Below, in pieces: positions 35,464 through 48,050 of a stretch of 64,000 nucleotides of DNA; the first letter of the stretch is position 1; each line of letters opens with the position of its first letter. The position numbers and the translations under genes are program-made. This DNA comes from Thermoleophilaceae bacterium. Lineage in GTDB: Bacteria > Actinomycetota > Thermoleophilia > Solirubrobacterales > Thermoleophilaceae. The notes under the pieces were generated by a model, which worked only from the letters and a program-made list of their open reading frames with translations, did no database searches and was not told where the DNA came from. The DNA is taken from positions 497,925 through 561,924 of the forward strand of contig JBBDYQ010000025.1 of assembly GCA_040901445.1 (NCBI GenBank), in the 5' to 3' direction.

Positions 35464-36453
35464 ATGATCTACGACAAGGACGCGGACCTCTCCAAGCTCG
35501 ACGGCACGACCGTCGCCGTACTCGGCTACGGCTCCCAGGGCCACGCTCACGCCCTCAACCTCTCCGACTCCGGTGTCAGCGTCGTCGTCGGCCTCCGCGA
35601 TGACTCGTCCTCGGTGGACAAGGTTCGGGGCGACGGCCTCGAGGTGGCGTCGATCGGCGACGCCGCCAGCCGCGGCGACATCGTCATGGTGCTCCTTCCC
35701 GACGAGAAGCAGGCGGATGTCTGGCAGGCCGAGATCGCCGACGGCATCGCGCCCGGCAACCTGCTCCTCTTCGCCCACGGCTTCTCCATCCACTTCGGGC
35801 AAGTGGAGCCGGGCTCCGAGGTCGACGTGGGCATGGTCGCTCCCAAGGGGCCCGGCCATCTGGTGCGGCGCCAGTATGCGGAGGGCAACGGCGTCCCCGG
35901 CCTGATGGCCGTGCACCAGGACGCCACCGGTCACGCCCGCGACCTGGTGCTGGCCTACGCCAAGGGCATCGGCTGCACGCGCGCGGGCGTGATCGAGACC
36001 AGCTTCAAGGACGAGACCGAGACCGACCTCTTCGGTGAGCAGGCGGTGCTCTGCGGCGGGGTCACCGAGCTGGTGCGCGCGGGCTACGAGACGCTCGTCG
36101 ACGCCGGCTACGACCCCCGTCTCGCCTACTTCGAGTGCCTCCACGAGCTGAAGCTGATCGTGGACCTCATGTACGAGAAGGGCATCACCGGCATGCGCTA
36201 CTCGATCTCCAACACGGCCGAGTACGGCGACCTCACGCGCGGCCGGCGGGTGATCACCGACGACACTCGCCAGGCCATGCGCGACATCCTCGGCGAGATC
36301 CAGTCCGGCGAGTTCGCCAAGGAGTGGATCGCCGAGAACCGGGCCGGCCAGGAGAGCTTCCAGCGCATGCGCCAGGAGGGCAAGGACCACCAGATCGAGC
36401 GCGAGGGACGCGAGCTGCGCTCGATGATGGACTGGATCGACCAGGAGTTCTGA
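35464..36453 (+). CDS. ilvC: Ketol-acid reductoisomerase
   Basis: 329 residues, the short class I form. It converts acetolactate to 2,3-dihydroxyisovalerate with NADPH and Mg. The nucleotide loop is [16 protein letters not shown]; the cofactor-binding region after it is [11 protein letters not shown]; catalytic and metal residues lie in [30 protein letters not shown] and the C-terminal knot segment [19 protein letters not shown]. It stands alone, with its own promoter box and a hairpin after it, away from ilvBN. Confidence 0.96.
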
Positions 36454-36488
36454 CGGTCCGTCTATGACCGTTCGGTGACGAGCTGCGG

Positions 36489-36514
36489 GGAGGGGATGGC
36501 GAAGCCTTCCCTCC
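36489..36514 (+). terminator. Hairpin after ilvC
   Basis: GGAGGGGATGGC pairs with GCCTTCCCTCC around a GAA loop (one bulge and imperfect pairing), 36 bases after the ilvC stop. No T-tract. It just precedes the next promoter box. Confidence 0.4.
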
Positions 36515-36519
36515 TCGGT

Positions 36520-36525
36520 TAGATT
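36520..36525 (+). promoter_or_regulatory. -10 box TAGATT, leaderless promoter of the first FHA gene
   Basis: TAGATT ends eight bases before the GTG at 36534. Confidence 0.5.
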
Positions 36526-36533
36526 GGCGCCTC

Positions 36534-37616
36534 GTGACCGACGTCCAGCTCAAGATCGTCGACGGCCCAGACAGCGGTCGCGAGTTTCCCATCGCGGGCG
36601 CGCTCGTGATCGGGCGCGACCCGAGCGCGGGCATCGTGCTCGAGGACACGGAGGTCTCCCGCCGCCATGCGCAGGTGGCTCCCCGCTCGTCGGGGGTGGT
36701 CATCGAGGACCTCGGCTCCACCAACGGCACCTTCGTCAACGGGGAGCAGATCGAGGGGGAGCGGCCGCTGCACGGCGGGGAGAAGGTGCGCATCGGCACG
36801 ACGGTGCTCGAGGTCAGCGTGCCCGTCCAGGCCACCAAGATCGCTTCGGTCATCCCGGAGGAGCCGGCGGACCCGAACGCCACCAGGATGGCGTCGATCA
36901 TGAGCCCCGAGGAGGCCGAGCGCGCCGCCGCGGCCGCCGAGGACGCTCCCGCCGCAGAGGAGGACGACGAGGCCACCGTCGTGCCGGAGGAGGCCGAGGC
37001 CGCCGCCGGCGGCACCGAGGCCCCCGCCACCGAGGCGCCGCCCGCCCCCCAGCCGCCGCCCGCGGCAGCCCCGGAGCCGCCCACCCCGCCCCCCATCGCG
37101 CCGCCCCCCGCCGTCGCCGGCCCGCAGAGCCCCGCAACGCCTCCGCCGCCCGCGGGCTTCCAGAGCCCGCCTCCGCCGCCCCCCGCGGGCGGCCCGCAGG
37201 CGCCGCTGCCGGCGCCGCCCGCCCAGGCCCAGCCACCCGCCGGCTACCAGGCCGGTCCGGGCTTCTGTGTGCGCGGCCCCGGCGAGCAGTGGGCCCTCTG
37301 CGCGCTCGTGCCCTTCTACAGCCTCATCTGGTACTACCGCCTCTGCAAGGAGATCGGCGAGTGGTCGGCGGGGCGCATACCCACCAACCCGACCACCAGC
37401 ATCCTGGCGATGACGCTCGGAGCCTTCATCGTCGTCCCGCCGTGGGTCAGCCTCGCCGGCACGATGGGGCGCATCCGCCAGTGCCAGCAGATGGCCGGGC
37501 TCCAGCCCCAGGCCAGCTTCTGGGGATTCTTCGGCCGCGCGCTGTTGCTCGGCTACGGCTACAAGTGGCTCACCGAGCAGCTCAACGAGCTCGCCGTGCG
37601 CCGGCCAGTCCAATAG
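36534..37616 (+). CDS. FHA-domain membrane protein with DUF4234-like C-terminus
   Basis: 360 residues, GTG start. The FHA domain (about 5-95) has the phosphothreonine-binding landmarks VIGRDPSAG, EDTEVSRRHAQV and EDLGSTNGTFVNGEQI. A long low-complexity linker rich in Ala/Glu, then Pro (about 115-240), leads to a membrane-bound C-terminal domain starting EQWALCALVPFYSLIWYYRL and ending ALLLGYGYKWLTEQLNEL, a DUF4234-like region with about three helices. It should bind phosphorylated partners at the membrane, plausibly substrates of the kinases nearby. Followed 13 bases later by another FHA gene. Confidence 0.85.
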   Translation: MTDVQLKIVDGPDSGREFPIAGALVIGRDPSAGIVLEDTEVSRRHAQVAPRSSGVVIEDLGSTNGTFVNGEQIEGERPLHGGEKVRIGTTVLEVSVPVQATKIASVIPEEPADPNATRMASIMSPEEAERAAAAAEDAPAAEEDDEATVVPEEAEAAAGGTEAPATEAPPAPQPPPAAAPEPPTPPPIAPPPAVAGPQSPATPPPPAGFQSPPPPPPAGGPQAPLPAPPAQAQPPAGYQAGPGFCVRGPGEQWALCALVPFYSLIWYYRLCKEIGEWSAGRIPTNPTTSILAMTLGAFIVVPPWVSLAGTMGRIRQCQQMAGLQPQASFWGFFGRALLLGYGYKWLTEQLNELAVRRPVQ

Positions 37617-37629
37617 GAAAGGAGCCGAT

Positions 37630-38241
37630 GTGGCCGACCTGATCCTGGAGATCGTCGAGGGTGGCGAGGCGGGGCGGCAGCTCCCGCTCACCGGCGCCGT
37701 GGACATCGGGCGCGATCCGTCGCTGCAGCTCGCGCTCGAGGACACGCAGATCTCGCGCCGTCACGCACGCGTGTCGATCCAGAACAACCAGCCGGTGGTC
37801 GAGGACCTGGGCTCCACGAACGGCACCTACGTCAACGACCAGCCGATCCAGGCACCGCGCGCCCTGGCGCCCGGCGACCGCGTGCGGGTCGGCCTCACGG
37901 TCCTGCTCCTGCGCGACTCCCAGCAGGTGGCGCGCCAGCCCTCCGCCGTGCAGCCGTCCCCACAGCTCACCGCGGTCGGGCAGGACGTGCTCCAGCCGGC
38001 GACGGCGCAGGAGCTCGCGCCCCCCGTGGCGGCGGCTCCGGGGGTGCCGCAGTTCGGCGTCGAGGAGACCGAGCCCGCCTTCGTCCCGCCCGAGGTCGTG
38101 GAGGACATCGAGGCCCAGTCCGACTACGCCGCCGTCCAGCGCCTCGTGGACACGCGGGTCAAGCGCCAGACCAACATCGCGGTCTTCGCGCTGCTCGGCG
38201 GCGCGGGCCTCGCGGTGCTCCTGGTCTTCGGCCTGCAGTAG
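37630..38241 (+). CDS. FHA-domain protein with C-terminal membrane anchor
   Basis: 203 residues, GTG start with AGGAAAGGAG upstream. The FHA domain (about 1-97) has DIGRDPSLQLALEDTQISRR and VEDLGSTNGTYVNDQPI, close to the preceding FHA. A Gln/Pro-rich linker and an acidic stretch follow, and one C-terminal membrane helix (TNIAVFALLGGAGLAVLLVFG) ends the chain, so the FHA domain faces the cytoplasm with a tail anchor. Co-transcribed with the preceding gene and convergent with the reverse-strand kinase operon. Confidence 0.85.
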   Translation: MADLILEIVEGGEAGRQLPLTGAVDIGRDPSLQLALEDTQISRRHARVSIQNNQPVVEDLGSTNGTYVNDQPIQAPRALAPGDRVRVGLTVLLLRDSQQVARQPSAVQPSPQLTAVGQDVLQPATAQELAPPVAAAPGVPQFGVEETEPAFVPPEVVEDIEAQSDYAAVQRLVDTRVKRQTNIAVFALLGGAGLAVLLVFGLQ

Positions 38242-38268
38242 TTCAGTGGCGGGCAATCGGCGTGGCGA

Positions 38269-38994
38269 TCACTCCTCCACCTGAATGCTGACGTCCTCCT
38301 CGAAGGGCTCGATCACGTAGTACGCGACCACGCCGGCCGCGGTGAGCGCCACCGCGATCGTGGCCAGCAGCGTGGCGCCCAGGCGCGTGGCGGCCGAGCC
38401 CTTCTGGCGCCCGGGCCCCTGCTCCCGGAACGCGGCGGGGCCGCCGGGCGGCGGCACCACGCGGCGGATGGCCGAGGGCTGGATGTCCGGAGCCGGCACG
38501 TCGCCGCGGGCGGCCCCCGGCGCGGGCGGCTGCGGGGCCGGGGGCTTGGGCACCTCCGGCTGCTGGGCCGTGGGCGGCGCCGGGACCGGGGGTGCGGGAG
38601 CGGGCGGGGCCTGCGGTGGCGGCGAGGGCGCGGCGTCCGGCACCTGCCGTGCGGCGGTGACCTGTGGGGGCGCCGCGCCGGGGGCGTCCGCGGTCGCCGT
38701 GGCCTGCGACGACGGCTGCACGCGCCAGACGGTGTTGCCCAGGCGCACCTCGTCCCCTTCGGAGAGCGTCTGGGTGCCCTGCACCTGCTGGCCGTTGACG
38801 AACGTGCCGTTGGTCGAGCCGAGGTCCTCGATCGAGAGCTGTTCCCCCGCCACGTGGATCGTGGCGTGGCGGCGCGAGACCTCCGGGTCCGCGAGGTTGA
38901 TCTCGCAGCCCTCGCGCCCTATCACGGCTCCTTCCTCGGGCACGTGCTCCTTGCCCTGCATGGGCTTCTGCTCGACAAAGATCAGCTGGCTCAC
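38269..38994 (-). CDS. FHA-domain protein with Pro-rich linker and membrane helix
   Basis: 241 residues from the GTG overlapping the kinase stop (GTGA). The N-terminal FHA domain has AVIGREGCEINLADPEVSRR and SIEDLGSTNGTFVNGQQV. A Pro/Ala-rich linker of about 75 residues is followed by a membrane helix (LGATLLATIAVALTAAGVVAYYV) and a short acidic outside tail (EDVSIQVEE). Direct coupling to the kinase suggests it is the kinase's substrate reader or scaffold. The longer open frame upstream is antisense noise inside the kinase gene. Confidence 0.85.
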   Translation of the reverse strand: MSQLIFVEQKPMQGKEHVPEEGAVIGREGCEINLADPEVSRRHATIHVAGEQLSIEDLGSTNGTFVNGQQVQGTQTLSEGDEVRLGNTVWRVQPSSQATATADAPGAAPPQVTAARQVPDAAPSPPPQAPPAPAPPVPAPPTAQQPEVPKPPAPQPPAPGAARGDVPAPDIQPSAIRRVVPPPGGPAAFREQGPGRQKGSAATRLGATLLATIAVALTAAGVVAYYVIEPFEEDVSIQVEE

Positions 38995-39845
38995 TCTCCA
39001 CCTCCACTGGGGGTCATCCCCGCCGCGATCTGGATCATCCGCGCGTACGCGCTGGCCGTTGGGGGCCGGTTCTCGGGTTCCTTCTCGAGGGCCCGGCTCA
39101 TGGCCCAGGCCACGTCCTGGCTCACGTCGCTCCGCTGCTCCCGGAGGTCCGGCGGATCGTCCTGCAGGTGCGCCCACAGGATGCGCATGCCCTGCCGGTC
39201 GGCAAACGGCGGCGAGCCCGTCATGCACTCGTACATGACGCAGCCGAGCGCGTACACGTCCGTTGCGGCGTCGACCTCCACGCCGCGGATCTGCTCCGGG
39301 GCCATGTAGTCCATGGAGCCGAGGGCCTGGCCGGGCTTGGTGAGGATGCTGGCGTCGCGGTCCTTGGCGAGGCCGAAGTCGGTGATGTAGGCCGCGCCCT
39401 CTTCGTCCAGCAGGATGTTGCCCGGCTTGACGTCACGGTGGACGAGGCCGCCGTCGTGCAGCGCGTCGAGGCCGCCGGCCACCTCGATGCAGAGGCGGAT
39501 GACGTCCTCGAGCGGAAGCTGCTTCTCGCGCTCGATGCGCTGCTCGAGCGAGCCGCCGCGGATGAACTGCTGCGCGAGGAATGGGATGCCCTCGTGCTCG
39601 CCCCGGTCGACGATCGGCACGACGTGGGGATGGATCACGCGCGCGGCGATGTCGGCCTCGCGGTCGAAGCGGCGCCGGAAGATGTCGTCGCTCGCCAGAT
39701 CGGCCTTGACGAGCTTCAGAGCGACCTCCGAGCCATCCGCGGCCGCGGCGCGGTACACGCGCCCCATGCCGCCCTCTCCGATCAGCGACTCCACGCGGTA
39801 CGAGCCGACGACAGAGCCCTCCTTCGGTTGGTCCGGCGACGCCAC
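38991..39845 (-). CDS. Soluble Ser/Thr protein kinase (PknB-like)
   Basis: 284 residues, GTG start. A complete Hanks-type kinase: Gly loop GEGGMGRV, ATP Lys K44, HRD loop HRDVKPGN (136-138), DFG 156-158, activation segment ending MDYMAPEQIRG, and the conserved Asp in DVYALGCVMYECMTG. The chain stops soon after the kinase fold, with no membrane helix or sensor domain, unlike PknB. Membrane location may come from the partner FHA protein, which starts inside its stop codon. Upstream genes of the same operon are a membrane protein and a flavin oxidoreductase. Confidence 0.93.
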   Translation of the reverse strand: MASPDQPKEGSVVGSYRVESLIGEGGMGRVYRAAAADGSEVALKLVKADLASDDIFRRRFDREADIAARVIHPHVVPIVDRGEHEGIPFLAQQFIRGGSLEQRIEREKQLPLEDVIRLCIEVAGGLDALHDGGLVHRDVKPGNILLDEEGAAYITDFGLAKDRDASILTKPGQALGSMDYMAPEQIRGVEVDAATDVYALGCVMYECMTGSPPFADRQGMRILWAHLQDDPPDLREQRSDVSQDVAWAMSRALEKEPENRPPTASAYARMIQIAAGMTPSGGGE

Positions 39846-39850
39846 CAGGC

Positions 39851-40426
39851 CTACGGTGCGGGCTGCGGCGCCGCCGGCACCTGATGGACGCCGGACGGGG
39901 CGGGCAGTGACTCGAGCGGCGTGGCGTGCAGGCCGGAGGCGGCGCGCACCAGCTCACCGGGCCCGCGACGGGCCTCCGCCGCGGAGGCCAGGACAGGCAG
40001 CGCCACCTGGGACGCCGGGATCGACCATTCGGTCGTGCGGAACTCGCCGGCCGACTCGAGGTAGGTGAGCGACAGGATGGGCAGGACCGCGATCTTCCCG
40101 CTGACCGCCAGCAGGTAGGAGGCCCAGTAGAAGATGGTGGCCTCGATGATCGAGATGTTCGGGAAGCCCTCCAGCAACTGGGTGACCGCCAGCAGCAGCC
40201 CGTACTCGGCCAGGGCGAGCACGCCCGTCATCCACGGCGGCTGGTACTTGAGGAGCCAGGAGTAGACGGCCGTGTCGAGGAAGACGGCGAGAAGCAGGTA
40301 TACGCCGATGAGCACGATCCAGTCGAGGTGGCCGGAGATCAGCGTGAGGATCAGCCCGAGGGCCGCGGGGCCCATGAGGATGGTCGCGACGCGGGTGTGG
40401 ACGCGGCCGATGGGTGTGGGGCACAT
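39851..40426 (-). CDS. Multi-span membrane protein of unknown function, in kinase operon
   Basis: 191 residues from the ATG at 40426, with GAGGAG upstream. Four or five hydrophobic segments: ATILMGPAALGLILTLISG, WIVLIGVYLLLAVFLDTAVY, TGVLALAEYGLLLAVTQLL, a segment around ATIFYWASYLLAVSGKIAVL, and a weaker one. The C-terminal 45 residues (ARRGPGELVRAASG on) are hydrophilic and Pro-rich. It lies 23 bases after the oxidoreductase and five before the kinase. I do not recognise the family; a membrane partner or electron-carrier anchor for the oxidoreductase is one guess. Confidence 0.72.
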   Translation of the reverse strand: MCPTPIGRVHTRVATILMGPAALGLILTLISGHLDWIVLIGVYLLLAVFLDTAVYSWLLKYQPPWMTGVLALAEYGLLLAVTQLLEGFPNISIIEATIFYWASYLLAVSGKIAVLPILSLTYLESAGEFRTTEWSIPASQVALPVLASAAEARRGPGELVRAASGLHATPLESLPAPSGVHQVPAAPQPAP

Positions 40427-40449
40427 GGTGGTGGTCTCCTCTCTCGGCC

Positions 40450-41808
40450 CTAGGCGAGCTGCTGGGTCTTGCGGATTTGCCGGAGCGCCTTGACGGTCTG
40501 GCGGGCCATGCCGACCTGCATGCCCACCCGCGACGGGAACGATGGCTGCTTGACGCCCTCGGCGCGGACGCAGTCGCCCACGAAGCGGCGGGCGATGTAC
40601 TTGAGCCCGGCGATCGTGTCCCCATTCGGGACCACGGTGTTCGCGTTGAGGCCCATCATGCAGAGCCGGGAGTCGTCGCGGTCCAGCGGCGGCACGCCGC
40701 AGTTGGTCTTGAGCACCACCCGCTCGCGTTCGACGGGCACGTTGTAGGTCTGGGCCAGGCGCCGCACCAGCGGCAGCGAGAAGGCCGACTTCACGAATCC
40801 CGTGCCGCACACGATGCCCGTGACGTCGAGCGTGAGCGTCTCGTCCGAGTCGTAGGGCTTGAAGTCGACCGTGAGGCCGGCGGGGCCCGGGCGGATGTCG
40901 GCGATGTTGCCGATGGCCTCCTCGAACAGCCCCTGCTGGCGACCCTGGCTGATGACCTCGTTCCAGCCCCGGCGGGCCGGCGAGGTGCCCTTGAGCGCGG
41001 CTCCCAGGAAGTCGAGCCGGTCGTCGAACGAGAGGCCCTGGAAGGCATCGATGCCGCTGCCGTCGAAGAGGCACCGCGGCACGTTGAGGTCCTGCTCCTC
41101 CGGGTGGGGGTTGCGCCGCAGCGCGATGCACTGGGCGCCGGCCTCGATGGCGTTGGCCCACTCGTTCACCGACGCGATGCCGGAGCCAACGACGATGTAG
41201 CGCCCGCCGCGGAAGTACTGCTTGGGCTCGTAGGCCTGAACCACGCGGTCGCTGGTGGCCGGGTTCTCCTTGGCCTTGCCGTACGCGCCCGGGAACGCGA
41301 GGGGTCCGTGCCCGATCGCGATCATGGCGTGCTTGCAGCGGCCGATGAGGCTGGCCTCCTCGTCGTAGAGCGAGAAATGGGCCGGCGGCCCGGGCTCACG
41401 CACGACCCAGCCGACCTTTGTGCCCCCCAGGACCCGGTCGGCGAAGCCGAGCCGCTTGGCGACGATGTTGGCCTCGGCCATGACGTCGGGCACGCCCGGG
41501 TTGAACTTGCGGCCTGCGGAACGGAAGAGGGGGGACGGGTCGCGGCGCGCCCACGCGTCGAGCTGGGCGAAGGTGGGCCAGTCCGCCGGCAGGAAGTGCG
41601 ACTCCGACTCCGACCGCAACACGGTCTGGCCGAGGTTCCAGGCGAACTGCTGATAGGTCTGGACCGGATTGACGTTCTCGCCGAACATCCCGACCTGCTC
41701 CGGCCGGAACCCCAGATACATGGCCGTGGTGTAGACGAGGAGGGCGCCGAACCCGTCCCCGATCACCCCGATCGTCACGTCTTGCGGATTTCCGTTCTGC
41801 GTGTTCAA
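40450..41808 (-). CDS. FAD/NAD(P)-dependent oxidoreductase of uncertain substrate
   Basis: 452 residues if started at the TTG (41808, MNTQNGNPQDVTIG) with GGGGGA upstream; the open frame runs further, but the extra residues are unlike a real N-terminus. A dinucleotide motif lies at VTIGVIGDGFGALLVYTTA and a second at YIVVGSGIASVNEWANAIEA, with IVCGTGFVKSAF near residue 340; the layout resembles flavin monooxygenases and pyridine-nucleotide oxidoreductases. The conserved-looking YQQFAWNLGQTVLRSESESH stretch near the N-terminus may shape the substrate site. First gene of a four-gene operon with a membrane protein, kinase and FHA protein. No substrate can be named. Confidence 0.78.
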   Translation of the reverse strand: MNTQNGNPQDVTIGVIGDGFGALLVYTTAMYLGFRPEQVGMFGENVNPVQTYQQFAWNLGQTVLRSESESHFLPADWPTFAQLDAWARRDPSPLFRSAGRKFNPGVPDVMAEANIVAKRLGFADRVLGGTKVGWVVREPGPPAHFSLYDEEASLIGRCKHAMIAIGHGPLAFPGAYGKAKENPATSDRVVQAYEPKQYFRGGRYIVVGSGIASVNEWANAIEAGAQCIALRRNPHPEEQDLNVPRCLFDGSGIDAFQGLSFDDRLDFLGAALKGTSPARRGWNEVISQGRQQGLFEEAIGNIADIRPGPAGLTVDFKPYDSDETLTLDVTGIVCGTGFVKSAFSLPLVRRLAQTYNVPVERERVVLKTNCGVPPLDRDDSRLCMMGLNANTVVPNGDTIAGLKYIARRFVGDCVRAEGVKQPSFPSRVGMQVGMARQTVKALRQIRKTQQLA

Positions 41809-41839
41809 CTGTCCCCCAGGAAGCGGATTGACGGCGGCC

Positions 41840-41845
41840 AGCCTA
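41840..41845 (-). promoter_or_regulatory. -10 box TAGGCT for the oxidoreductase/kinase operon
   Basis: TAGGCT on the reverse strand lies 31 bases before the TTG start at 41808, leaving room for a leader with a ribosome site. Confidence 0.4.
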
Positions 41846-41950
41846 CCCGCGACCCGGTCGGATCGCGAGGCCCCGTCCCAACTTTTTCTCCCTTCGCAAT
41901 CTCTGGCCTGGCACCATGCACCCATCCCACGTAGGAGACGACCCGCGACC

Positions 41951-42943
41951 ATGACCATGAGAGCACTCGTGCTGGCCACCGTGGCTGCCCTCGCGGCAGT
42001 GCCGGCGACGGCGTTCGCCCAGGCCCCGCCGCCCAACGACAACTACCTCGAGTCCCTGCGGGTCAACGAGGCGGGAGACGCGCTCCCCCGCGGCTCGACG
42101 GTCCAGGACATCCAGGACACCACGTTGGCCACCGTGCAGGCCGACATGTTCGCGCCGCCTGCGCAGGGCGGCCCGCAGGAGCCCACCCAGTGCGAGTCGA
42201 GCGCCTACGGCGCGACCATCTGGTACGACTTCTACCCGGATCGCAGCGCCATCGCCCGCATCACCGTCAACGGCAACGGCTTCGACCCGGTGATCGGGAT
42301 CCTCAACTTCAACGCGCGCGACGCGCAGCCCAACTTCCCGGGCACCTGCATCGACCGGCTCTCGTTCACCAACGAGGTCCTCGAGGTGCCCGTGCTGCGC
42401 GGGCGTGCCTACACCGTGCAGGTCGGCGGCTTCCAGGGCGCCGGCGGGGTCACCGAGACGCTGTTCGACTTTCTCCGCCTGCCCACGGTCGACGCCAGCC
42501 CCACGCTGCGCGCGCGGCCCACGTCCAGCGGCATCCGGGTGTCCAGCTTGAAGGTCAACGCTCCGCGCGGCGCCCGCGTCGAGGTCACCTGCACGCGTCG
42601 TGCCTGCCGCAAGCAGGCACGACGGGCGTCCACGGACTTCGTGGGCTATCAGCGGCTCGGCCGGCTCGAGCCCGGCCGCCCGCAGGCGCAGCCCACTGCC
42701 AGCTGGTCCAAGAACGGCGACGGTGGCTCCTCCGTCGAGCCGCGCGCCAACGCGTCGCGCACCGTGAGCTTCAGGAACGTTCGCGCCAAGCGCATGCGCT
42801 CCGGCACCCGCATCCGCATCCGGGTCACGCAGCAGAACAACATCGGCCGCTACATCGAGTACCGCGTCGTGCGCGGCAACTTCCGCCGCACGAACCGCTG
42901 CCTCGAGCCGGGCTCGACGCGCCCGCGGACGCGCTGCACGTGA
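41951..42943 (+). CDS. Secreted protein with PPC-like beta-sandwich domain
   Basis: 330 residues; ATG at 41951 (a second ATG two codons later is also possible). Signal peptide MTMRALVLATVAALAAVPATAFAQ in effect covers residues 1-24. The mature protein opens PPPNDNYLESLRVNEAG, then WYDFYPDRSAIARITVNGNG and RGRAYTVQVGGFQGAGG, the pattern of pre-peptidase C-terminal-type sandwiches in secreted actinobacterial proteins. The rest is beta-rich, with Arg-rich stretches and a Cys pair (CTRRAC). The next gene starts inside its stop codon. Role unknown; possibly cell-surface. Confidence 0.75.
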   Translation: MTMRALVLATVAALAAVPATAFAQAPPPNDNYLESLRVNEAGDALPRGSTVQDIQDTTLATVQADMFAPPAQGGPQEPTQCESSAYGATIWYDFYPDRSAIARITVNGNGFDPVIGILNFNARDAQPNFPGTCIDRLSFTNEVLEVPVLRGRAYTVQVGGFQGAGGVTETLFDFLRLPTVDASPTLRARPTSSGIRVSSLKVNAPRGARVEVTCTRRACRKQARRASTDFVGYQRLGRLEPGRPQAQPTASWSKNGDGGSSVEPRANASRTVSFRNVRAKRMRSGTRIRIRVTQQNNIGRYIEYRVVRGNFRRTNRCLEPGSTRPRTRCT

Positions 42944-43338
42944 CCCCCGGCCGGGTCATCGCGGTCGGGGCCGTCGCGGCCATCGTCGCGTTCGGCGCCG
43001 CCTTCGGCGTCGGCAAGGTCACCGGCGGCGAGGAGGAGGCTTCGGCCTCCCAGGCCGCGCAGAGCATCCAGCTCGACGACGCGCAGCCGCGCGCCGCGAC
43101 GCTCGACCGCGCCGCCCCGCTCCCGCAGCTCCGCTCTGAGCCGCGCCGCCGGTCCCGGCCCTCCGGTGGCGGTGGCGGTGGTGGCGGCGGCGGAAGCGCC
43201 CCGGCGCCCGCTCCGAGCCCCTCGCCTGCCCCTGCTCCCGCGCCGGCCCCCGCGCCCGCTCCCGCACCCGCCCCGTCGCCCGGAGGAGGCGGTGGTGGTG
43301 GCGGTGGCGGCGGTGGCGGCGGGATCATCGAGGGCTAG
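42940..43338 (+). CDS. Membrane-anchored low-complexity Gly/Pro protein
   Basis: 132 residues, GTG start overlapping the preceding stop. One N-terminal helix (RVIAVGAVAAIVAFGAAFGVG) is followed by an acidic patch, an Arg-rich patch, a run of about ten Gly, a PAPAPSPSPAPAPAPA repeat, and a longer Gly run ending IIEG. The Gly/Pro tail should be extended and lie outside the membrane. Such simple sequence may change length by slippage. The coupling to the secreted protein gene supports translation. Function unknown. Confidence 0.6.
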   Translation: MTPGRVIAVGAVAAIVAFGAAFGVGKVTGGEEEASASQAAQSIQLDDAQPRAATLDRAAPLPQLRSEPRRRSRPSGGGGGGGGGGSAPAPAPSPSPAPAPAPAPAPAPAPAPSPGGGGGGGGGGGGGGIIEG

Positions 43339-43362
43339 ATGGCTGATCCCAAGACCATCTAG
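43335..43362. promoter_or_regulatory. Inverted repeat CTAGATGG/CCATCTAG before the kinase gene
   Basis: Eight-base perfect arms (43335-43342 and 43355-43362) include the preceding stop codon and overlap the first bases of the kinase -10 box (43360-43365). A hairpin terminator and an operator that would block the kinase promoter are both possible. Confidence 0.45.
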
Positions 43363-43365
43363 ACT
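43360..43365 (+). promoter_or_regulatory. -10 box TAGACT, leaderless promoter of the membrane kinase
   Basis: TAGACT ends nine bases before the TTG at 43375. Confidence 0.5.
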
Positions 43366-43374
43366 CCCGCCGCT

Positions 43375-45459
43375 TTGCTCGACAAGGGGACAACCGTTGC
43401 GGGGTACCGCATCGACGGCGTGCTGGGCGAGGGCGGCATGGGGGTGGTGTACGAGGCCACCCAGCTGTCGCTCGACCGCAGGGTCGCCCTGAAGCTGCTG
43501 GCCACCCACCTGGGCGAGGACCCGCAGTTCCGCGAGCGCTTCCGGCGGGAGGCGCTCATCCAGGCGGGCATCGACCACCCGCACATCGTCACCGTCTACG
43601 AGGCCGGCGAAGACCCCCAGGGCCTGTTCATGGCCATGCGCCTCGTCCGCGGGCCCAACCTCAAGGACATGGTCCTCGCGCGGGAGCTGGACGCCGGGCG
43701 CTCGCTGCGCATCCTGACTCCGGTGGCGGAGGCGCTCGACGCGGCGCACGAGGCCGAGCTCATCCACCGCGACATCAAGCCGCAGAACATCCTGGTCTCG
43801 GGCCGCGACCACGCCTACCTCGCGGACTTCGGCCTCACCAAGGCGCCGGGGGAGAAGAGCCTCACCAAGACCGGGCAGTTCGTCGGCACGCTCGACTACA
43901 TCTCGCCGGAGCAGATCCGCGGCCTGAAGGCCACGTCGGCGAGCGACATCTACGCGCTCGCGGCGGTGCTGTACGAGTGCCTCAGCGGCGTGGTGCCCTA
44001 TCCCAAGGACTCCGAGGCGGCGGTGCTGTTCGCGCACATGTCGGACCAGCCGCCCAAGGTCACCGACGAGCGCCCGGAGCTCCCCGCGGAGCTCGACGCG
44101 GTCATCGCCCGCGCCATGGCCAAGGACCCCGAGCAGCGGCACCCCTCCGCCGGCGAGCTGCTGCGCGACGCCGAGGAGGCCTTCGGCCGGCGCCTGCGCG
44201 GCGTCATCTCCACGCCGGGCCCGCTGGAGGGGCCCGAGGAGACGGGCATACGCGCACCCGAGGGCGCAGTGGGCACGCGCGAGTCCAGCGTGCAGAGCTC
44301 CGATCAGGTCGCCGGCGCCACCTCGCCCGGCGGGCCCGAGGCCACCAAGCTCGCAGGGGCCGCCGACGCCACGAAGCTTGCCGCCGGGGCTGACGCCACC
44401 AAGCTCGCGGCGGGTGTGGACGCCACCAAGCCCGCCGGCGTCGCCGACGCGACCGCGCTCGGCACGACGCCCTCGGAGGCCGGCACCGCGCCGCTTCCCG
44501 TCACGGACGCAACGGACGAGCGCGCGCTGCCCGCAGCCGGCCGCAAGGCGCCCGCCGGCGCCATCGTCGCGGTGGCCGCTGGTGTGGTGGCGCTGGCCGT
44601 GGCCGGGTTCATCCTCGGAAGCTCGGGCGGCAGCTCGGAGCCCGAGGGCACGAACTCCGTCTCCGCGGGCATGCTCCGCGTGAGCTACCCCGACGGCTGG
44701 CAGGAGGGCGGCAACGTGGCGGAGGTACCGGGCCTCGAGCCGGCCGACCCCATCCAGCTCGCCGCGCCCGGCAGCGCCGGCGGCGGGCTCGTGGCGGGCC
44801 GCGTCGAGGCCGCCGGGCCCACCCTGCTGCCGGCGAGCTTCCTCGAGCGCCTCGACCAGCCGCCCGCCACGGACGATGCCGTGCAGCTCGGGGAGTACGA
44901 GGCGTACCGCTACCGCAACCTCGAGCCCGAGGGCGCCGACGACCCCGTCACCGTCTACGTGGTGCCCAGCACCGGGGGCGTGGCCGCGCTCGCCTGCGTG
45001 GGCGCACCCGAGGCCCAGCGAGAGTGCGAGGAGGTGGCCGCGTCGATCGAGCTTCGCGACGCCGAGCCGGTTGGGCTCGGGCCGAGCCAGGAGTACGCCG
45101 ACGCCCTCAGCGCCGCCATGGGACGCCTGAACTCCACCCGCGCCGCCGGGCGTTCCACCCTCCGGGGGGCCCGCACCCCGGACGGGCAGGCGCGCGCCGC
45201 GGGCAACCTCCAGCAGGCCTATCGCCAGGCCGCCCAGGCGCTCGAGGAGGCGCCGGCGGGGCCCGCCGCGGCGGGGGCCAACGCGGCCATCGTCTCGGCC
45301 CTGGCCGACACCGCCAGCGCCTACGAGCGCCTCGCAGCGGCGGCCAACCGCGGCGAGCGCGGCAGGTACAGCTCCGCCCGTGCCGCGGTCGGCCGTGGCG
45401 AGCAGCGGGTGCAGCGCGCCGTCCAGACCCTGAGGGACCTGGGCTACAGCGTTTCCTGA
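43375..45459 (+). CDS. Transmembrane Ser/Thr protein kinase (PknB family) with repeat linker
   Basis: 694 residues, TTG start. The kinase domain covers residues about 9-275: GEGGMGVVYEA, K40, HRD 131-133, DFG 151-153, and GTLDYISPEQIRG. A linker carries five copies of an ADATKLAAG-like repeat (residues about 323-362) whose threonines could be autophosphorylation sites for the FHA proteins nearby. A single membrane helix (GAIVAVAAGVVALAVAGFIL, about 396-416) leads to an outside domain of about 275 residues: a beta part resembling a DUF1795/PsbP-like fold (VSAGMLRVSYPDGWQ) and a helical end. No PASTA repeats are present, so the signal sensed is not simply muropeptide. Confidence 0.92.
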   Translation: MLDKGTTVAGYRIDGVLGEGGMGVVYEATQLSLDRRVALKLLATHLGEDPQFRERFRREALIQAGIDHPHIVTVYEAGEDPQGLFMAMRLVRGPNLKDMVLARELDAGRSLRILTPVAEALDAAHEAELIHRDIKPQNILVSGRDHAYLADFGLTKAPGEKSLTKTGQFVGTLDYISPEQIRGLKATSASDIYALAAVLYECLSGVVPYPKDSEAAVLFAHMSDQPPKVTDERPELPAELDAVIARAMAKDPEQRHPSAGELLRDAEEAFGRRLRGVISTPGPLEGPEETGIRAPEGAVGTRESSVQSSDQVAGATSPGGPEATKLAGAADATKLAAGADATKLAAGVDATKPAGVADATALGTTPSEAGTAPLPVTDATDERALPAAGRKAPAGAIVAVAAGVVALAVAGFILGSSGGSSEPEGTNSVSAGMLRVSYPDGWQEGGNVAEVPGLEPADPIQLAAPGSAGGGLVAGRVEAAGPTLLPASFLERLDQPPATDDAVQLGEYEAYRYRNLEPEGADDPVTVYVVPSTGGVAALACVGAPEAQRECEEVAASIELRDAEPVGLGPSQEYADALSAAMGRLNSTRAAGRSTLRGARTPDGQARAAGNLQQAYRQAAQALEEAPAGPAAAGANAAIVSALADTASAYERLAAAANRGERGRYSSARAAVGRGEQRVQRAVQTLRDLGYSVS
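44341..44460 (+). repeat. Tandem ADATKLAAG-like coding repeat in the kinase linker
   Basis: Five imperfect units of roughly 24 bases encode A-T-K-L/P-A repeats (ATKLAGAAD, ATKLAAGAD, ATKLAAGVD, ATKPAGVAD, ATALG). The threonines may be phosphorylated. Confidence 0.7.
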
Positions 45460-45511
45460 CGGGCCGGTGAACTGCGGGAAACCCGAGTTGCGATCTGTCC
45501 CCGATCCGGGT

Positions 45512-45517
45512 TAGGTT
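45512..45517 (+). promoter_or_regulatory. -10 box TAGGTT, leaderless antiporter promoter
   Basis: TAGGTT ends six bases before the ATG at 45524. Confidence 0.55.
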
Positions 45518-45523
45518 CGCTCC

Positions 45524-47311
45524 ATGAACAACCTCCTGGCGCAGATGCCCGTGCCCAATCCTCCCGAAGCCCTGCCGGGCGGGGAGGTGGTCGCATACGT
45601 CCTCGCGGCGCTGGCGATCATCCTGATCTCGGCGCGCATCGTCGGCGGGCTGTTCGTCCGCATCGGCCAGCCGCGCGTGGTCGGGGAGATCATCGCGGGC
45701 ATCCTGATCGGGCCGACGGTGCTCGGAGGCAAGCTCGCCACCCCGGCCGTCACGAGCCTCGAGCGGCAGGCGGTGGACGGCAGCGGGCTGGTCAACGACA
45801 TCTACCCGCTGCAGGCGTTCGCGTTCCTCAACCTGCTCGGCGTCCTCACGCTCGTCTTCTTCATGTTCCTCGTGGGCCTCGAGGTCCAGCAGCGCTTCCT
45901 CAAGGGCAAGGGACCCCAGATCCTCACGGTGGCGCTGGCCGTGACGATCATCCCGGTCGCACTCGGCTTCGTTTTCAACGCGCTGTTCTCCGGCGCCGAG
46001 TACAAGCCGGGTGGGATCTCGGCGGGCACGCAGGGCCTGATCCTCGGAGCCGCGATAGCGGTCACCGCGTTCCCCGTCATGGCGCGCATCCTCCAGGAGA
46101 AGCGCCAGATCGCCACGCCCATGGGCGCGGTCGGCGTGGGGGCGGCGGCAATCGTCACGCCGCTCATGTTCCTCGTGCTCGCGGGCGCCTCCGCGTCGGC
46201 CAAGGGGCAGGGCGCGCCCAACGCGATCGCCACGAAGCTCGCGCTCGCCGTCGGGTTCGCGGCGCTCTGCTTCTTCGTCGTGCGGCCGCTGCTGCAGCGC
46301 TTCGTGCTGAAGGACTTCGACGCGGAGAAGCCGCTGAGCAACCACGTCCTCGCCGTGCTGCTCGCCGGCGCGGTGCTCGGCGGCCTGGCGGGCGACCGCA
46401 TCGGCATCCACTCCCTCAACGGCGCGTTCATCTTCGGCGCCTGCGTGCCGCAGATCGCGGGCCTGGGCAAGGCCGTGATCGACCGGATGAGCGACTTCGT
46501 CGCCGTCTTCCTGATCCCGGTCTTCCTCGCCGTCGCCGGTCTTCAGACGGACTTCCGCGTGCTGACCGTGGAGCTGATCCCGGGCATCCTCGTGTTCCTG
46601 GCGTTCATGATCGCGGGCAAGTGGGCCGTGGGCTACGGCGCTGCGCGCGCCGTCGGGCTCAAGTCGAGCGAGGCCAACACGATCGGCGTGCTCATGAACT
46701 GCCGCGGGCTCATGCTGCTCGTGGTGGCGATCGTGGCCGGGCAGTTCGACGGCATCACGCCCGAGATGCGCGTGATCTTCGCCCTCGGCGCGATCGTCAC
46801 CACCATGATGACCGGCCCGCTCGTGGACCTCTTCCTGCCCAAGGAGGACGTCGAGGCCGAGCGTGACAAGTCGATCCAGGGCTCCATTGCCGGCCTCCCG
46901 GCCATGACCGGTGGGCCGCGCGTGGTGATCGCCCCGTCGGAGGCGGGACACGCCTCGGCGGCGGTGTCGGCAGCCGTGGAGCGCTTCCTCGGCGCCGAGG
47001 GGCCCAAGCCGCAGTTCCTCGTCACCAGCCTCCCCGGCCTGTCGCCGGCGGGAGACTACGTGGGGGCGCTGCTCGAGTCCGGGGAGGAGCGCAGCGTCAC
47101 CCAGACGCTCGGCTGGCTCGGGCCGGCCGCCGCGCGCCTGTCGGCGGCGGGGGCGGATGCCGAGGCGGTCTCGTTCCAGACGCCCGAGCCGGACGCCGAC
47201 CTGGCCAAGCTGGCCACCGACTGGGCGGCCACCGACGCGGTGGTCACCGACGTGGACCAGGCCGGCGCGCTCGAGGAGGCCGGCCTCACGGTGCACCGGG
47301 TCTCCGCCTGA
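45524..47311 (+). CDS. CPA2-family cation:proton antiporter
   Basis: 595 residues. About 12 membrane helices cover residues 20-440, starting VAYVLAALAIILISARIVGG then GQPRVVGEIIAGILIGPTVLG, the signature of KefB/NapA-type Na+(K+)/H+ exchangers. LVFFMFLVGLEVQQRFL is the conserved second-repeat opening, and AFPVMARILQE is the usual unwound-helix region of helix 4/5. The C-terminal 130 residues are hydrophilic (GGPRVVIAPSEAGHASAAVS), resembling a degenerate universal-stress-like regulatory domain. The ion cannot be read from the sequence. Confidence 0.88.
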   Translation: MNNLLAQMPVPNPPEALPGGEVVAYVLAALAIILISARIVGGLFVRIGQPRVVGEIIAGILIGPTVLGGKLATPAVTSLERQAVDGSGLVNDIYPLQAFAFLNLLGVLTLVFFMFLVGLEVQQRFLKGKGPQILTVALAVTIIPVALGFVFNALFSGAEYKPGGISAGTQGLILGAAIAVTAFPVMARILQEKRQIATPMGAVGVGAAAIVTPLMFLVLAGASASAKGQGAPNAIATKLALAVGFAALCFFVVRPLLQRFVLKDFDAEKPLSNHVLAVLLAGAVLGGLAGDRIGIHSLNGAFIFGACVPQIAGLGKAVIDRMSDFVAVFLIPVFLAVAGLQTDFRVLTVELIPGILVFLAFMIAGKWAVGYGAARAVGLKSSEANTIGVLMNCRGLMLLVVAIVAGQFDGITPEMRVIFALGAIVTTMMTGPLVDLFLPKEDVEAERDKSIQGSIAGLPAMTGGPRVVIAPSEAGHASAAVSAAVERFLGAEGPKPQFLVTSLPGLSPAGDYVGALLESGEERSVTQTLGWLGPAAARLSAAGADAEAVSFQTPEPDADLAKLATDWAATDAVVTDVDQAGALEEAGLTVHRVSA

Positions 47312-47318
47312 GCCGCGC

Positions 47319-47324
47319 TAGGCT
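47319..47324 (+). promoter_or_regulatory. -10 box TAGGCT, leaderless
   Basis: TAGGCT ends nine bases before the ATG at 47334. Confidence 0.45.
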
Positions 47325-47333
47325 CGGACGACG

Positions 47334-47990
47334 ATGGAAGGCAAGCCGCCCGAGGACCAGGAACGCGACGACACTCCGCCCGGCGGGTGGCTGCCGCCGG
47401 TGCCCCCGGGCCAGCCGCACGACCCCGGCGTGTTCGCCCCGCCGCCGTACCAGCAGCCCGCACAGCAGCCGCCGCCGGCGGCGGCGCAGCCTCCGCCGGG
47501 GCAGTACCAGGCGCCGCCGCCCGCGCCCGGCTACCAGCCGCCGCCCCCGCCCGGCTGGAACCAGCCGCCGTGGCAGCAGCAGGGCGGCTTGCAGCAGCCC
47601 GGCTGGCAGGCCGCTCCGCAGGGCCCCGGCAACGGCACGGCCATCACCGGCTTCGTCCTGTCGGTCTCCTCGATCGCGCTCCTGTTCTTCTCCGCGGGCC
47701 TGTCCAGCGTCATCTCGCTGGGCCTGGCCATCGCGGGCGCAATCGTCGGGCGCAACGGCCGCCAGAAGGTCGACCGCGGCGAGACCACCCAGCACCGCGG
47801 CCTCGGCCAGGCCGGGTTCATCGTGGGCATCGTGGGCGCGGTGCTGTCGGTGCTCGCCATAGTCACCTGGACCCTGATCTTCACCCTCGTCGACGACTTC
47901 GGCGACGACGACGACCTCTTCGACGAGGACTTCCAGACCACGCGCGCGGCAGGCGCCGTGCTCGCCGCGGCGCTGCGCCTGACGCTCTAG
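47334..47990 (+). CDS. Pro/Gln-rich DUF4190-type membrane protein
   Basis: 218 residues. The first 100 are Pro, Gln and Tyr-rich (repeated PPPGYQPPPPP-like units). Two membrane segments follow, GTAITGFVLSVSSIALLFF with AIAGAIVGRNGRQK, and GLGQAGFIVGIVGAVLSVLA, the DUF4190 pattern. A short acidic loop (DDFGDDDDLFDEDF) and a small tail end the chain. DUF4190 proteins are of unknown role and common in actinobacteria. Confidence 0.8.
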   Translation: MEGKPPEDQERDDTPPGGWLPPVPPGQPHDPGVFAPPPYQQPAQQPPPAAAQPPPGQYQAPPPAPGYQPPPPPGWNQPPWQQQGGLQQPGWQAAPQGPGNGTAITGFVLSVSSIALLFFSAGLSSVISLGLAIAGAIVGRNGRQKVDRGETTQHRGLGQAGFIVGIVGAVLSVLAIVTWTLIFTLVDDFGDDDDLFDEDFQTTRAAGAVLAAALRLTL

Positions 47991-48050
47991 CGACGGGCCG
48001 GGGAGCCGCCCGGCCGTTCGCTATCCTCGGCCGCCCTCCGAGAGCACCAC

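What the first reader, a model, noticed from the sequence alone, without database searches (positions are those of the whole stretch)
38269..41808. Operon of flavin oxidoreductase, multi-span membrane protein, soluble kinase and FHA protein
Four reverse-strand genes are packed with gaps of 23 and 5 bases and a four-base overlap. The kinase lacks its own membrane anchor, while the FHA partner has one. Coupling a phosphothreonine circuit to an unassigned FAD/NAD(P) enzyme and an unknown membrane protein does not match a pathway I know, so this is a candidate undescribed redox-signalling unit.
Basis: partly seen in the sequence, partly recalled or inferred. Interest (0 to 1): 0.58.

Follow-up and report, generated by a model that had tools for sequence, protein, structure and literature searches.

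The report
Flavoenzyme–membrane pair with phospho-signalling partners
In some little-studied actinobacteria an undescribed flavoenzyme and its dedicated membrane partner sit beside membrane-anchored phosphoprotein-reading proteins and a protein kinase, which suggests a phosphorylation-controlled redox enzyme at the cell membrane.

Summary
The four reverse-strand genes are exactly as described. Relatives show what is conserved. The core is a two-gene cassette: a predicted FAD/NAD(P)H flavoprotein (OXR) and a four-helix membrane protein (TM), neither matching a Pfam or NCBIfam family above cut-off. TM follows OXR in 33 of 36 public loci; the other three stop at contig ends. In the OXR group closest to the window, FHA domains lie within 3 kb in 9 of 12 genomes (0.21 expected) and kinases within 6 kb in 8 of 12 (0.41 expected). 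The tightest partner is not the FHA gene of the finding but a convergent tail-anchored FHA gene at 37630-38241: its full-length form was found in 6 of 399 class genomes, all six with OXR. One relative fuses kinase, FHA and anchor. OXR's model folds like N-hydroxylating monooxygenases (PvdA Z 28) but misses their hallmarks. The TM tail carries a Ser/Thr motif resembling one in the FHA partner. Among 14 loci the exact four-gene run is seen only in the window, in an insertion of about 10 kb between ilvC and serA. Best reading: a membrane flavoenzyme controlled by Ser/Thr phosphorylation; substrate and direction of control unproven.

The parts
40450..41808 (-). OXR: predicted FAD/NAD(P)H flavoprotein, 452 aa, model with the fold of N-hydroxylating / class B flavin monooxygenases, no named family
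39851..40426 (-). TM: four-helix membrane protein, 191 aa, no named family, partner of OXR; conserved R12, D51, Y55, Q62, E74, E124, E128; cytosolic tail by positive-inside rule (inference)
39875..39898 (-). Ser/Thr motif PSGVHQVP in the TM tail (residues 177-184); at residue 178 the 14 group A tails have Ser (13) or Thr (1), read by eye from the printed tails
38991..39845 (-). Ser/Thr protein kinase without membrane span; GEGGMG, ALK, HRDVKPGN and DFG motifs present
38269..38994 (-). FHA-b: FHA domain, proline-rich linker, membrane span near the C-terminus
37630..38241 (+). FHA-a: tail-anchored FHA protein, convergent with FHA-b; the best conserved signalling partner of OXR-TM (outside the finding's coordinates)
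37939..37962 (+). Motif PSAVQPSP in the FHA-a linker (residues 104-111), similar to the TM-tail motif
36534..37616 (+). FHA protein with a DUF4234-like C-terminal membrane part (E 0.068, below cut-off); may belong to the host gene cluster rather than to the insertion
43375..45459 (+). Second Ser/Thr kinase (694 aa), same insertion
45524..47311 (+). Na+/H+ exchanger (PF00999), same insertion; in relatives the linked form is mostly a larger antiporter-Usp protein
37630..47311 (.). Approximate insertion: genes between ilvC (35464-36453) and the aminotransferase/serA genes (48051, 49321) that are not found between them in family relatives

Best explanation
OXR and TM form a membrane-bound NADPH-flavoenzyme unit: OXR docks on the cytosolic face of the four-helix TM protein, which supplies the membrane site or substrate. 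In the OXR group of the window (group A) the unit has been placed under Ser/Thr phosphorylation control. The kinase phosphorylates the cytosolic TM tail (P-S/T-G-V-x-x-V-P type motif) and/or the similar motif in FHA-a; the tail-anchored FHA proteins read the mark in the membrane plane and hold kinase, flavoenzyme and, in several relatives, a Na+/H+ antiporter-Usp protein together, switching the unit on or off. Shown: the cassette, its near-invariable pairing, the FHA/kinase/antiporter neighbourhood, the predicted C-terminal spans of most neighbouring FHA proteins, one kinase-FHA fusion, the predicted fold of OXR. Inferred: FAD binding, NADPH preference, docking of OXR on TM, topology and phosphorylation of the tail, direction of control, substrate.
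For: TM directly follows OXR in 33 of 36 genome-contig loci, in L109 and in the window; the three misses are contig ends. FHA within 3 kb in 9 of 12 genomes (expected 0.21), kinase within 6 kb in 8 of 12 (0.41); antiporter within 5 kb in 6 of 12 (0.19). Full-length FHA-a in 6 of 399 class genomes, all six among the 11 with group A OXR (hypergeometric 9e-11). Convergent FHA-b/FHA-a pair in the window and in L073-L078, 7 of 14 group A loci. Kinase+FHA+membrane span in one 469-aa protein in L077/G244; searches place both domains in a 486-aa open frame. Of 18 neighbouring FHA proteins of relatives, 14 end in a membrane span. Motif P[ST][AG][VI]..[VI]P in 5 of 14 group A TM proteins and 3 of 20 FHA proteins, 0 of 162 other proteins, 0 of 20 group B TM proteins; a looser form in 4 of 17 FHA linkers, shuffle mean 0.48, P 0.0015. 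Group B loci show no FHA or kinase hit (0 of 24) and their TM proteins run on into a beta-helix. OXR: no conserved Cys, PvdA/SidA-like model, homology to an N-hydroxylase profile at 95% over residues 98-269. Precedent: kinase PpkA and Fha with phosphothreonine of the membrane protein TssL (PMC3953482; title and start of abstract seen).
Against: The exact four-gene run is seen only in the window. Three of 12 genomes show no kinase near OXR (G032 on a 5-kb contig, G086 and G096 on long contigs), G384 only at 14 kb, and two no FHA within 10 kb (G106 on a 7-kb contig, G153). FHA domains prefer phosphothreonine (established knowledge), while the tail residue is Ser in 13 of 14. The motif was defined after looking at the sequences, both regions are proline-rich, and the strict form is in a minority of TM tails. 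My first figure for its conservation (96% of alignment A5) was partly an artefact: group B rows there align a Ser of their beta-helix. A short GVHxGP segment lies before the beta-helix in 14 of 20 group B TM proteins, so part of the tail may be older than the link to FHA genes. 4 of the 18 neighbouring FHA proteins do not end in a span. Genomes are related, so the neighbourhood probabilities are overstated. The first Rossmann fold has Gly where the FAD-ribose acid usually stands, so FAD binding itself is unproven.
Confidence: 0.4

Rival explanations
1. Sensor in the other direction: OXR-TM monitors NADPH, quinone or membrane redox state and feeds the kinase, whose output (read by the FHA proteins) sets the antiporter-Usp protein or other targets.
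For: Same neighbourhood data; antiporter-Usp genes near the cassette in several relatives; the OXR profile also touches FSP1-type NAD(P)H:quinone reductases at E 0.003. Precedent for FHA reading a Usp protein: Rv1747 FHA I with Rv2623 pT237 (PMC5549992, abstract read).
Against: Group B has the same cassette with no kinase or FHA hit in the loci held (0 of 24), so the core seems to work without them; OXR has no conserved Cys and TM no conserved His or Cys, leaving mainly flavin or quinone chemistry as sensor.
Confidence: 0.23
2. Hitch-hiking: OXR-TM is an autonomous envelope- or lipid-modifying monooxygenase pair; it travels in stretches rich in kinase/FHA genes without functional contact.
For: Patchy distribution (TM in 1 of 31 genomes of the window's family), an insertion of about 10 kb between ilvC and serA (gap 12.9 kb against 1.2-3.8 kb in 16 of 16 relatives where both were found), gene order around the core not fixed.
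Against: Full-length FHA-a occurs only in genomes with OXR, 6 of 6; clear FHA-a lies within about 2 kb of the pair in 8 of 14 group A loci and weaker relatives in two more; the same kinds of partner recur in different families and in one genome outside the class (G444).
Confidence: 0.27
3. OXR is an ordinary siderophore-type amine N-hydroxylase (PvdA/SidA/DfoA) and the cluster is a metabolite pathway.
For: Best fold matches are N-hydroxylases over nearly the whole chain (PvdA Z 28.0, 377 aligned residues; SidA Foldseek E 1.5e-20).
Against: 11% identity; no Lys_Orn_oxgnase match for P0001 and only 2 of 27 OXR members at E up to 1, best 0.0083; the GxGPxN and DPTSPxSFLNYL stretches of six N-hydroxylases are absent; no siderophore family was reported for the proteins scanned.
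Confidence: 0.05

Closest known systems
PpkA-Fha-TssL phospho-switch of type VI secretion (Agrobacterium; PMC3953482, title and start of abstract seen)
   Same: A Ser/Thr kinase, an FHA protein and a membrane protein that carries the phosphosite
   Different: No secretion family was reported for the proteins scanned here beyond the FHA-related Yop-YscD_cpl domain; the membrane protein pairs with a flavoenzyme; whether a phosphosite exists is untested
PknF-Rv1747 operon and Rv1747 FHA I with the Usp protein Rv2623 (PMC3908365 start of abstract, PMC5549992 abstract)
   Same: Kinase and FHA-bearing membrane protein in an operon; FHA contact with a universal stress protein
   Different: Rv1747 is an ABC transporter with its own FHA domains; here most FHA proteins are separate and tail-anchored, and the Usp-like region sits on an antiporter
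PknG-OdhI/GarA control of 2-oxoglutarate dehydrogenase (PMC8546545, search listing)
   Same: STPK and FHA protein acting on an oxidoreductase in actinobacteria
   Different: OdhI/GarA are soluble (recalled); P0004 and P0005 have a membrane span and score far below the OdhI cut-off (46.9 and 52.6 against 200 bits)
N-hydroxylating monooxygenases PvdA, SidA, KtzI, DfoA
   Same: Nearly whole-chain fold of the model and detectable profile homology
   Different: Family motifs missing, membrane partner present, phospho-signalling neighbours

Membership tests
Lys_Orn_oxgnase / N-hydroxylating monooxygenases (PF13434) | Match over the curated Pfam cut-off | tested here: not met
   P0001 no match at E up to 1; 2 of 27 members match at E up to 1, best 0.0083
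Lys_Orn_oxgnase / N-hydroxylating monooxygenases (PF13434) | Whole-chain fold | tested here: met
   PvdA Z 28.0, 377 residues aligned, rmsd 3.4, model residues 9-418
Lys_Orn_oxgnase / N-hydroxylating monooxygenases (PF13434) | GxGPxN and DPTSPxSFLNYL stretches (consensus of six actinobacterial members) | tested here: not met
   Motifs from alignment A6; the OXR alignment shows GxG[FLM][GAS] and, in most rows, RSES[ED][SG]H instead
Lys_Orn_oxgnase / N-hydroxylating monooxygenases (PF13434) | N-hydroxylation of an amine | not testable with these tools
   needs an enzyme assay
Pyridine nucleotide-disulphide / thioredoxin reductases | Redox-active Cys pair | tested here: not met
   No Cys column at 60% or more among 27 OXR sequences; Pyr_redox_2 11.5 bits against 26.1 for P0001
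Hanks-type Ser/Thr kinase | Pkinase domain with Gly loop, Lys, HRD, DFG | tested here: met
   166.3 bits against 31.7; motifs read in P0003
PknB/Stk1 PASTA kinase (NF033483) | Full-length equivalog score, PASTA repeats, membrane span | tested here: not met
   269.7 bits against 450, only profile positions 7-266 of 563 match, no span
FHA domain (PF00498) | Curated domain score | tested here: met
   P0004 73.4, P0005 72.3, P0006 66.2 bits against 20.7
FhaB/FipA (NF049868) and OdhI/GarA (NF041660) | Equivalog cut-off | tested here: not met
   63.2-85.4 against 125 and 46.9-52.6 against 200 bits for P0004-P0006
DoxX four-helix partners of oxidoreductases (PF07681) | Sequence-profile homology | tested here: not met
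   DoxX is not among the families matched by the 23 TM members; profile-profile probability 0.2%
DoxX four-helix partners of oxidoreductases (PF07681) | Fold | tested here: inconclusive
   Foldseek PDB search of the TM model returned nothing at E up to 10

The most novel reading that the evidence does not exclude
A previously undescribed kind of membrane redox unit: an NADPH flavoprotein of a new monooxygenase-like family, docked on a new four-helix membrane family, whose cytosolic tail and a dedicated tail-anchored FHA protein share a phosphorylatable motif, so that a phosphothreonine/serine relay in the plane of the membrane gates the flavoenzyme and a partner Na+/H+ antiporter-Usp protein.
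Probability: 0.2. Interest if true: 0.8.

Novelty: new variant of a known kind. Interest (0 to 1): 0.58.

Why it matters
It joins two protein families without a database name into a near-obligate pair, and ties that pair to Ser/Thr kinase and FHA signalling in lineages met here only as metagenome bins (record titles). If right, it gives another FHA-controlled oxidoreductase next to OdhI/GarA, this time at the membrane, and small peptides (the TM tail, the FHA-a linker) on which it can be tested directly.

Tried and rejected
DoxX-type partner: DoxX not among the Pfam matches of 23 TM members and profile comparison 0.2%. TM fold: Foldseek against PDB gave no match at E up to 10; the TM sequence profile matched no PDB chain at E up to 1. 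The first genome-contig scan, with P0001 alone, confirmed nothing; the alignment scan did. tRNA at the insertion: none between 34000 and 50000. Repeats at 36300-48100: what I looked at were low-complexity stretches and related FHA or kinase stretches; I saw no obvious flanking direct repeat and did not test the point further. G+C of the stretch (0.69-0.77 in 1-kb steps) does not differ from its surroundings. Promoter and terminator scan uninformative. Amphipathic helix at the OXR C-terminus: moment up to 0.56 but mean hydrophobicity zero or negative in nearly all windows, so no membrane helix is claimed. Literature (listings only unless said): no paper in the held library with Thermoleophilia and 'FHA domain', none with Solirubrobacter, protein kinase and forkhead-associated; among the papers listed (12 of 48; 8 of 8; 8 of 19) no title or abstract start describes this set. 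PMC1262709 was searched for terms only.

'All FHA proteins end in a span' became 14 of 18. Confidence in the best explanation was lowered from 0.42 to 0.40 for this, and the two main rivals raised by 0.01 each.

Rows left out: OXR alignment A1 used 17 relatives and A4 26 of the 36 loci (fragments and loci where my gene caller failed were dropped; L083 entered as the matched stretch only); TM alignment A5 22 of 36; DoxX alignment 13 of 16 loci; the motif count used 14 TM proteins, two of them (L081, L083) added by translating the open frame; ilvC surroundings were fetched for 17 of 24 genomes with a match and one (L116) ends before serA. The gene caller is home-made and gave some over-long starts (for example OXR in L045/L076, FHA in L083) and missed genes (for example in L081). 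In the gap list the entry for L044 is a placeholder, not a gap.
Full report
Observation. Four minus-strand genes at 41808-38269 have the spacing claimed (23, 5, overlap 4). The kinase is a complete Hanks-type kinase domain with no membrane span; the FHA protein has a span near its C-terminus. The oxidoreductase matches no Pfam model above its cut-off and no NCBIfam model, and the membrane protein matches neither library at E up to 1. Beyond the stated coordinates, two more FHA genes (36534-37616 and 37630-38241, plus strand), a probably secreted protein (41951-42943), a second kinase (43375-45459) and a Na+/H+ exchanger (45524-47311) complete a signalling-rich stretch.

The core pair. P0001 has a single match in its genome. 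Of 399 class genomes, 40 hold a relative at E up to 0.001: 11 at 42-100% identity over nearly the whole length (group A, window included), the other 29 at 24-37% (group B and weaker). A search of 396 genomes of the phylum with the alignment gave 12 with a match at 1e-15; one full-length relative lies outside the class (G444), five other genomes outside the class gave partial matches of 62-79 bits. An alignment scan of named genomes gave 36 loci, nearly all titled Thermoleophilia, Solirubrobacterales, Actinobacteria or Actinomycetota metagenome bins; one is titled Burkholderiales. With profiles on six-frame translations, TM follows OXR directly in 33 of these 36 (in L099 only its start is held), and the three misses (L101, L104, L108) stop at a contig end; it also follows in L109 (G444) and the window. 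Gaps between OXR and TM are 1 to 166 bases, or a 1-base overlap, in the 11 group A loci measured. In group B the TM protein continues into a beta-helix domain (Beta_helix or NosD in 12 of the 23 members of A5, the 12 being its group B rows), and the pair lies near sugar-type ABC transporter genes: 10 of 10 group B loci examined have at least one of the three transporter clusters.

What OXR is. AlphaFold2 on 27 window and the search for related loci sequences gave pLDDT 90.4. The best structural matches are ornithine, lysine and diamine N-hydroxylases over nearly the whole chain: PvdA Z 28.0, rmsd 3.4, 377 residues, 11% identity; SidA Foldseek E 1.5e-20; other flavin monooxygenases, YpdA and thioredoxin reductases follow. 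A profile of six actinobacterial N-hydroxylases found by family search aligns with the OXR profile at 95% probability (E 2.9e-8) over residues 98-269; with the smaller alignment A1 the probability is 87%. But the N-hydroxylase hallmarks (GxGPxN; DPTSPxSFLNYL) are absent and the Pfam family matches only 2 of 27 members, best E 0.0083. Invariant features of A4 are Q61, H71, H167, a second Rossmann motif (G208, G210, A212) followed by R232, and TGF (336-338); the RSES[ED][SG]H stretch is kept in most rows but not in L049/L050. No Cys is conserved, so disulfide chemistry is unlikely; a Gly follows the second strand of the first Rossmann fold in most rows, where an acid usually holds FAD ribose (the usual acid is recalled knowledge). 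NADPH preference from R232 is inference.

What TM is. Four predicted helices (10-residue means of pLDDT 80-95 from residue 11 to 120) and a low-confidence tail, overall 76.5; no PDB fold or sequence relative found, not DoxX by sequence profile. Conserved polar residues R12, D51, Y55 and E74 lie in helices; no His or Cys column reaches 60%, which argues against a haem or thiol relay. By charge the N-terminus, the middle loop and the tail face the cytosol (inference).

Signalling partners. The 12 group A genomes searched have 6-13 FHA and 7-23 kinase domain matches each. An FHA domain lies within 3 kb of OXR in 9 of 12 (expected 0.21) and within 6 kb in 10 of 12 (0.36); a kinase within 3 kb in 6 of 12 (0.25) and within 6 kb in 8 of 12 (0.41); a PF00999 antiporter within 5 kb in 6 of 12 (0.19) and within 10 kb in 7 of 12 (0.31). 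The expectation assumes random positions; relatedness and gene clustering make the probabilities too small. Misses: G106 has no FHA on its 7.3-kb contig, G153 one only at 14.3 kb; G032 (5.2-kb contig), G086 and G096 have no kinase near, G384 one at 14.1 kb; five genomes have no antiporter within 10 kb (though a 96-aa C-terminal piece of one lies beside OXR at the contig end in G032). Group B shows no FHA or kinase hit in any of 24 loci, by my gene calls and a phmmer threshold of 1e-4.

Which FHA. Two types recur. FHA-a (window 37630-38241) has the FHA domain, a linker and a membrane span at the very end; FHA-b (window 38269-38994) has a span near its end. They stand convergent in the window and in L073-L078, 7 of 14 group A loci. 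Clear FHA-a (236 bits or more) lies within about 2 kb of the pair in 8 of 14 group A loci; two more (L083, L084) have a weaker relative there (89 and 100 bits), L077 has FHA-a at about 6 kb, and L079 (7-kb contig), L080 and L081 have none that close. A profile of nine FHA-a proteins searched in 399 class genomes at 1e-30 matched seven: full-length in six (223-288 bits; G000, G032, G244, G269, G371, G384), all of which have group A OXR; G021, and a second gene of G000, match in the FHA domain part only (113 and 122 bits). The five group A genomes of family f5 did not match at that threshold, so the co-occurrence is complete only within the order; the profile was built from these loci, only the eight best candidates per genome are scored, and I assume that the two 399-genome samples are the same. 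Of 18 neighbouring FHA proteins of relatives, 14 end in a membrane span, G032's FHA-b has a span 28 residues before its end, L077_13 an internal one, and two of L076 none.

Kinase and FHA-b. In L077/G244 one protein of 469 aa holds kinase, FHA and C-terminal span (open frame of 486 aa in both family searches). The best kinase relatives of P0003 near the cassette are at G269 (4e-105) and G371 (2e-89, with a second kinase at 7e-87), against 5e-61 to 8e-63 in f5. The window's run OXR-TM-kinase-FHA-b is seen nowhere else among the 14 loci; G032 has OXR-TM-FHA-b without a kinase and G106 kinase-OXR-TM.

Shared tail motif. P[ST][AG][VI]..[VI]P occurs in 5 of 14 group A TM proteins, each time in the tail, in 3 of 20 FHA proteins, each time just after the FHA domain, and in 0 of 162 other proteins, 0 of 9 kinases and 0 of 12 OXR, nor in 20 group B TM proteins. 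All 14 group A tails have Ser (13) or Thr (1) at the place of S178. A looser form is in 4 of 17 FHA linkers against a shuffle mean of 0.48 (P 0.0015). The pattern was chosen after seeing the sequences, both regions are rich in proline, and a GVHxGP segment in 14 of 20 group B TM proteins resembles part of the tail, so this is a lead, not proof.

Origin. In 16 of 16 family relatives where both genes were found (17 fetched), ilvC and serA lie 1.2-3.8 kb apart; in the window 12.9 kb. The extra stretch holds the genes discussed here. One relative (G027) has a piece similar to the window's first FHA gene in the gap, and six have a relative of 47334-47990 there, so those two genes may be native. TM is in 1 of 31 genomes of the window's family, some of them incomplete. 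The pattern fits acquisition as an island, without visible mobile genes.

How it may work. Best reading: a membrane NADPH flavoenzyme under Ser/Thr phosphorylation control, by analogy with PpkA-Fha-TssL (PMC3953482, start of abstract) and PknF-Rv1747-Rv2623 (PMC3908365 start of abstract; PMC5549992 abstract). Group B suggests that the pair can do without the signalling genes, so control would be a lineage-specific addition. Rival readings are a redox sensor feeding the kinase, and hitch-hiking in an island. The substrate is unknown.

Verdict. The finding is a pair without a database name plus a new use of a known signalling toolkit.

Noticed in passing
L059:7310-8653; L051-L060: Group B cassettes lie near sugar-type ABC transporter genes; in L059 one permease (447 aa, BPD_transp_1) carries an SdrD_B/carboxypeptidase-regulatory-like domain, and the OXR-partner membrane protein is fused to a beta-helix.
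   Followed up: partly
L042:10897-13872, L043:3957-6716, L044:5373-8447, L109, L111:7874-10825: A large antiporter-Usp protein (about 900-1030 aa) with an N-terminal stretch that looks repeated by eye in L042-L044 sits near the cassette in relatives; a 983-aa protein of that kind in the window's genome lies on another contig (C14).
   Followed up: partly
L092 (JAICUZ010000201.1): A record titled Burkholderiales carries a group B cassette; perhaps a mis-binned or mislabelled contig.
   Followed up: no
window 44327-44461: The second kinase gene (43375-45459) has a tandem repeat with 27-base spacing (DATKLA-type) downstream of its kinase domain.
   Followed up: no
L077:9969-11696: A 575-aa protein with FHA domain, membrane span and a lactonase-type beta-propeller directly follows OXR-TM.
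   Followed up: no
L047:13165-14139, L048:10539-12443, L049:8389-9348: Sigma-70-like factors neighbour the cassette in three f5 genomes.
   Followed up: no
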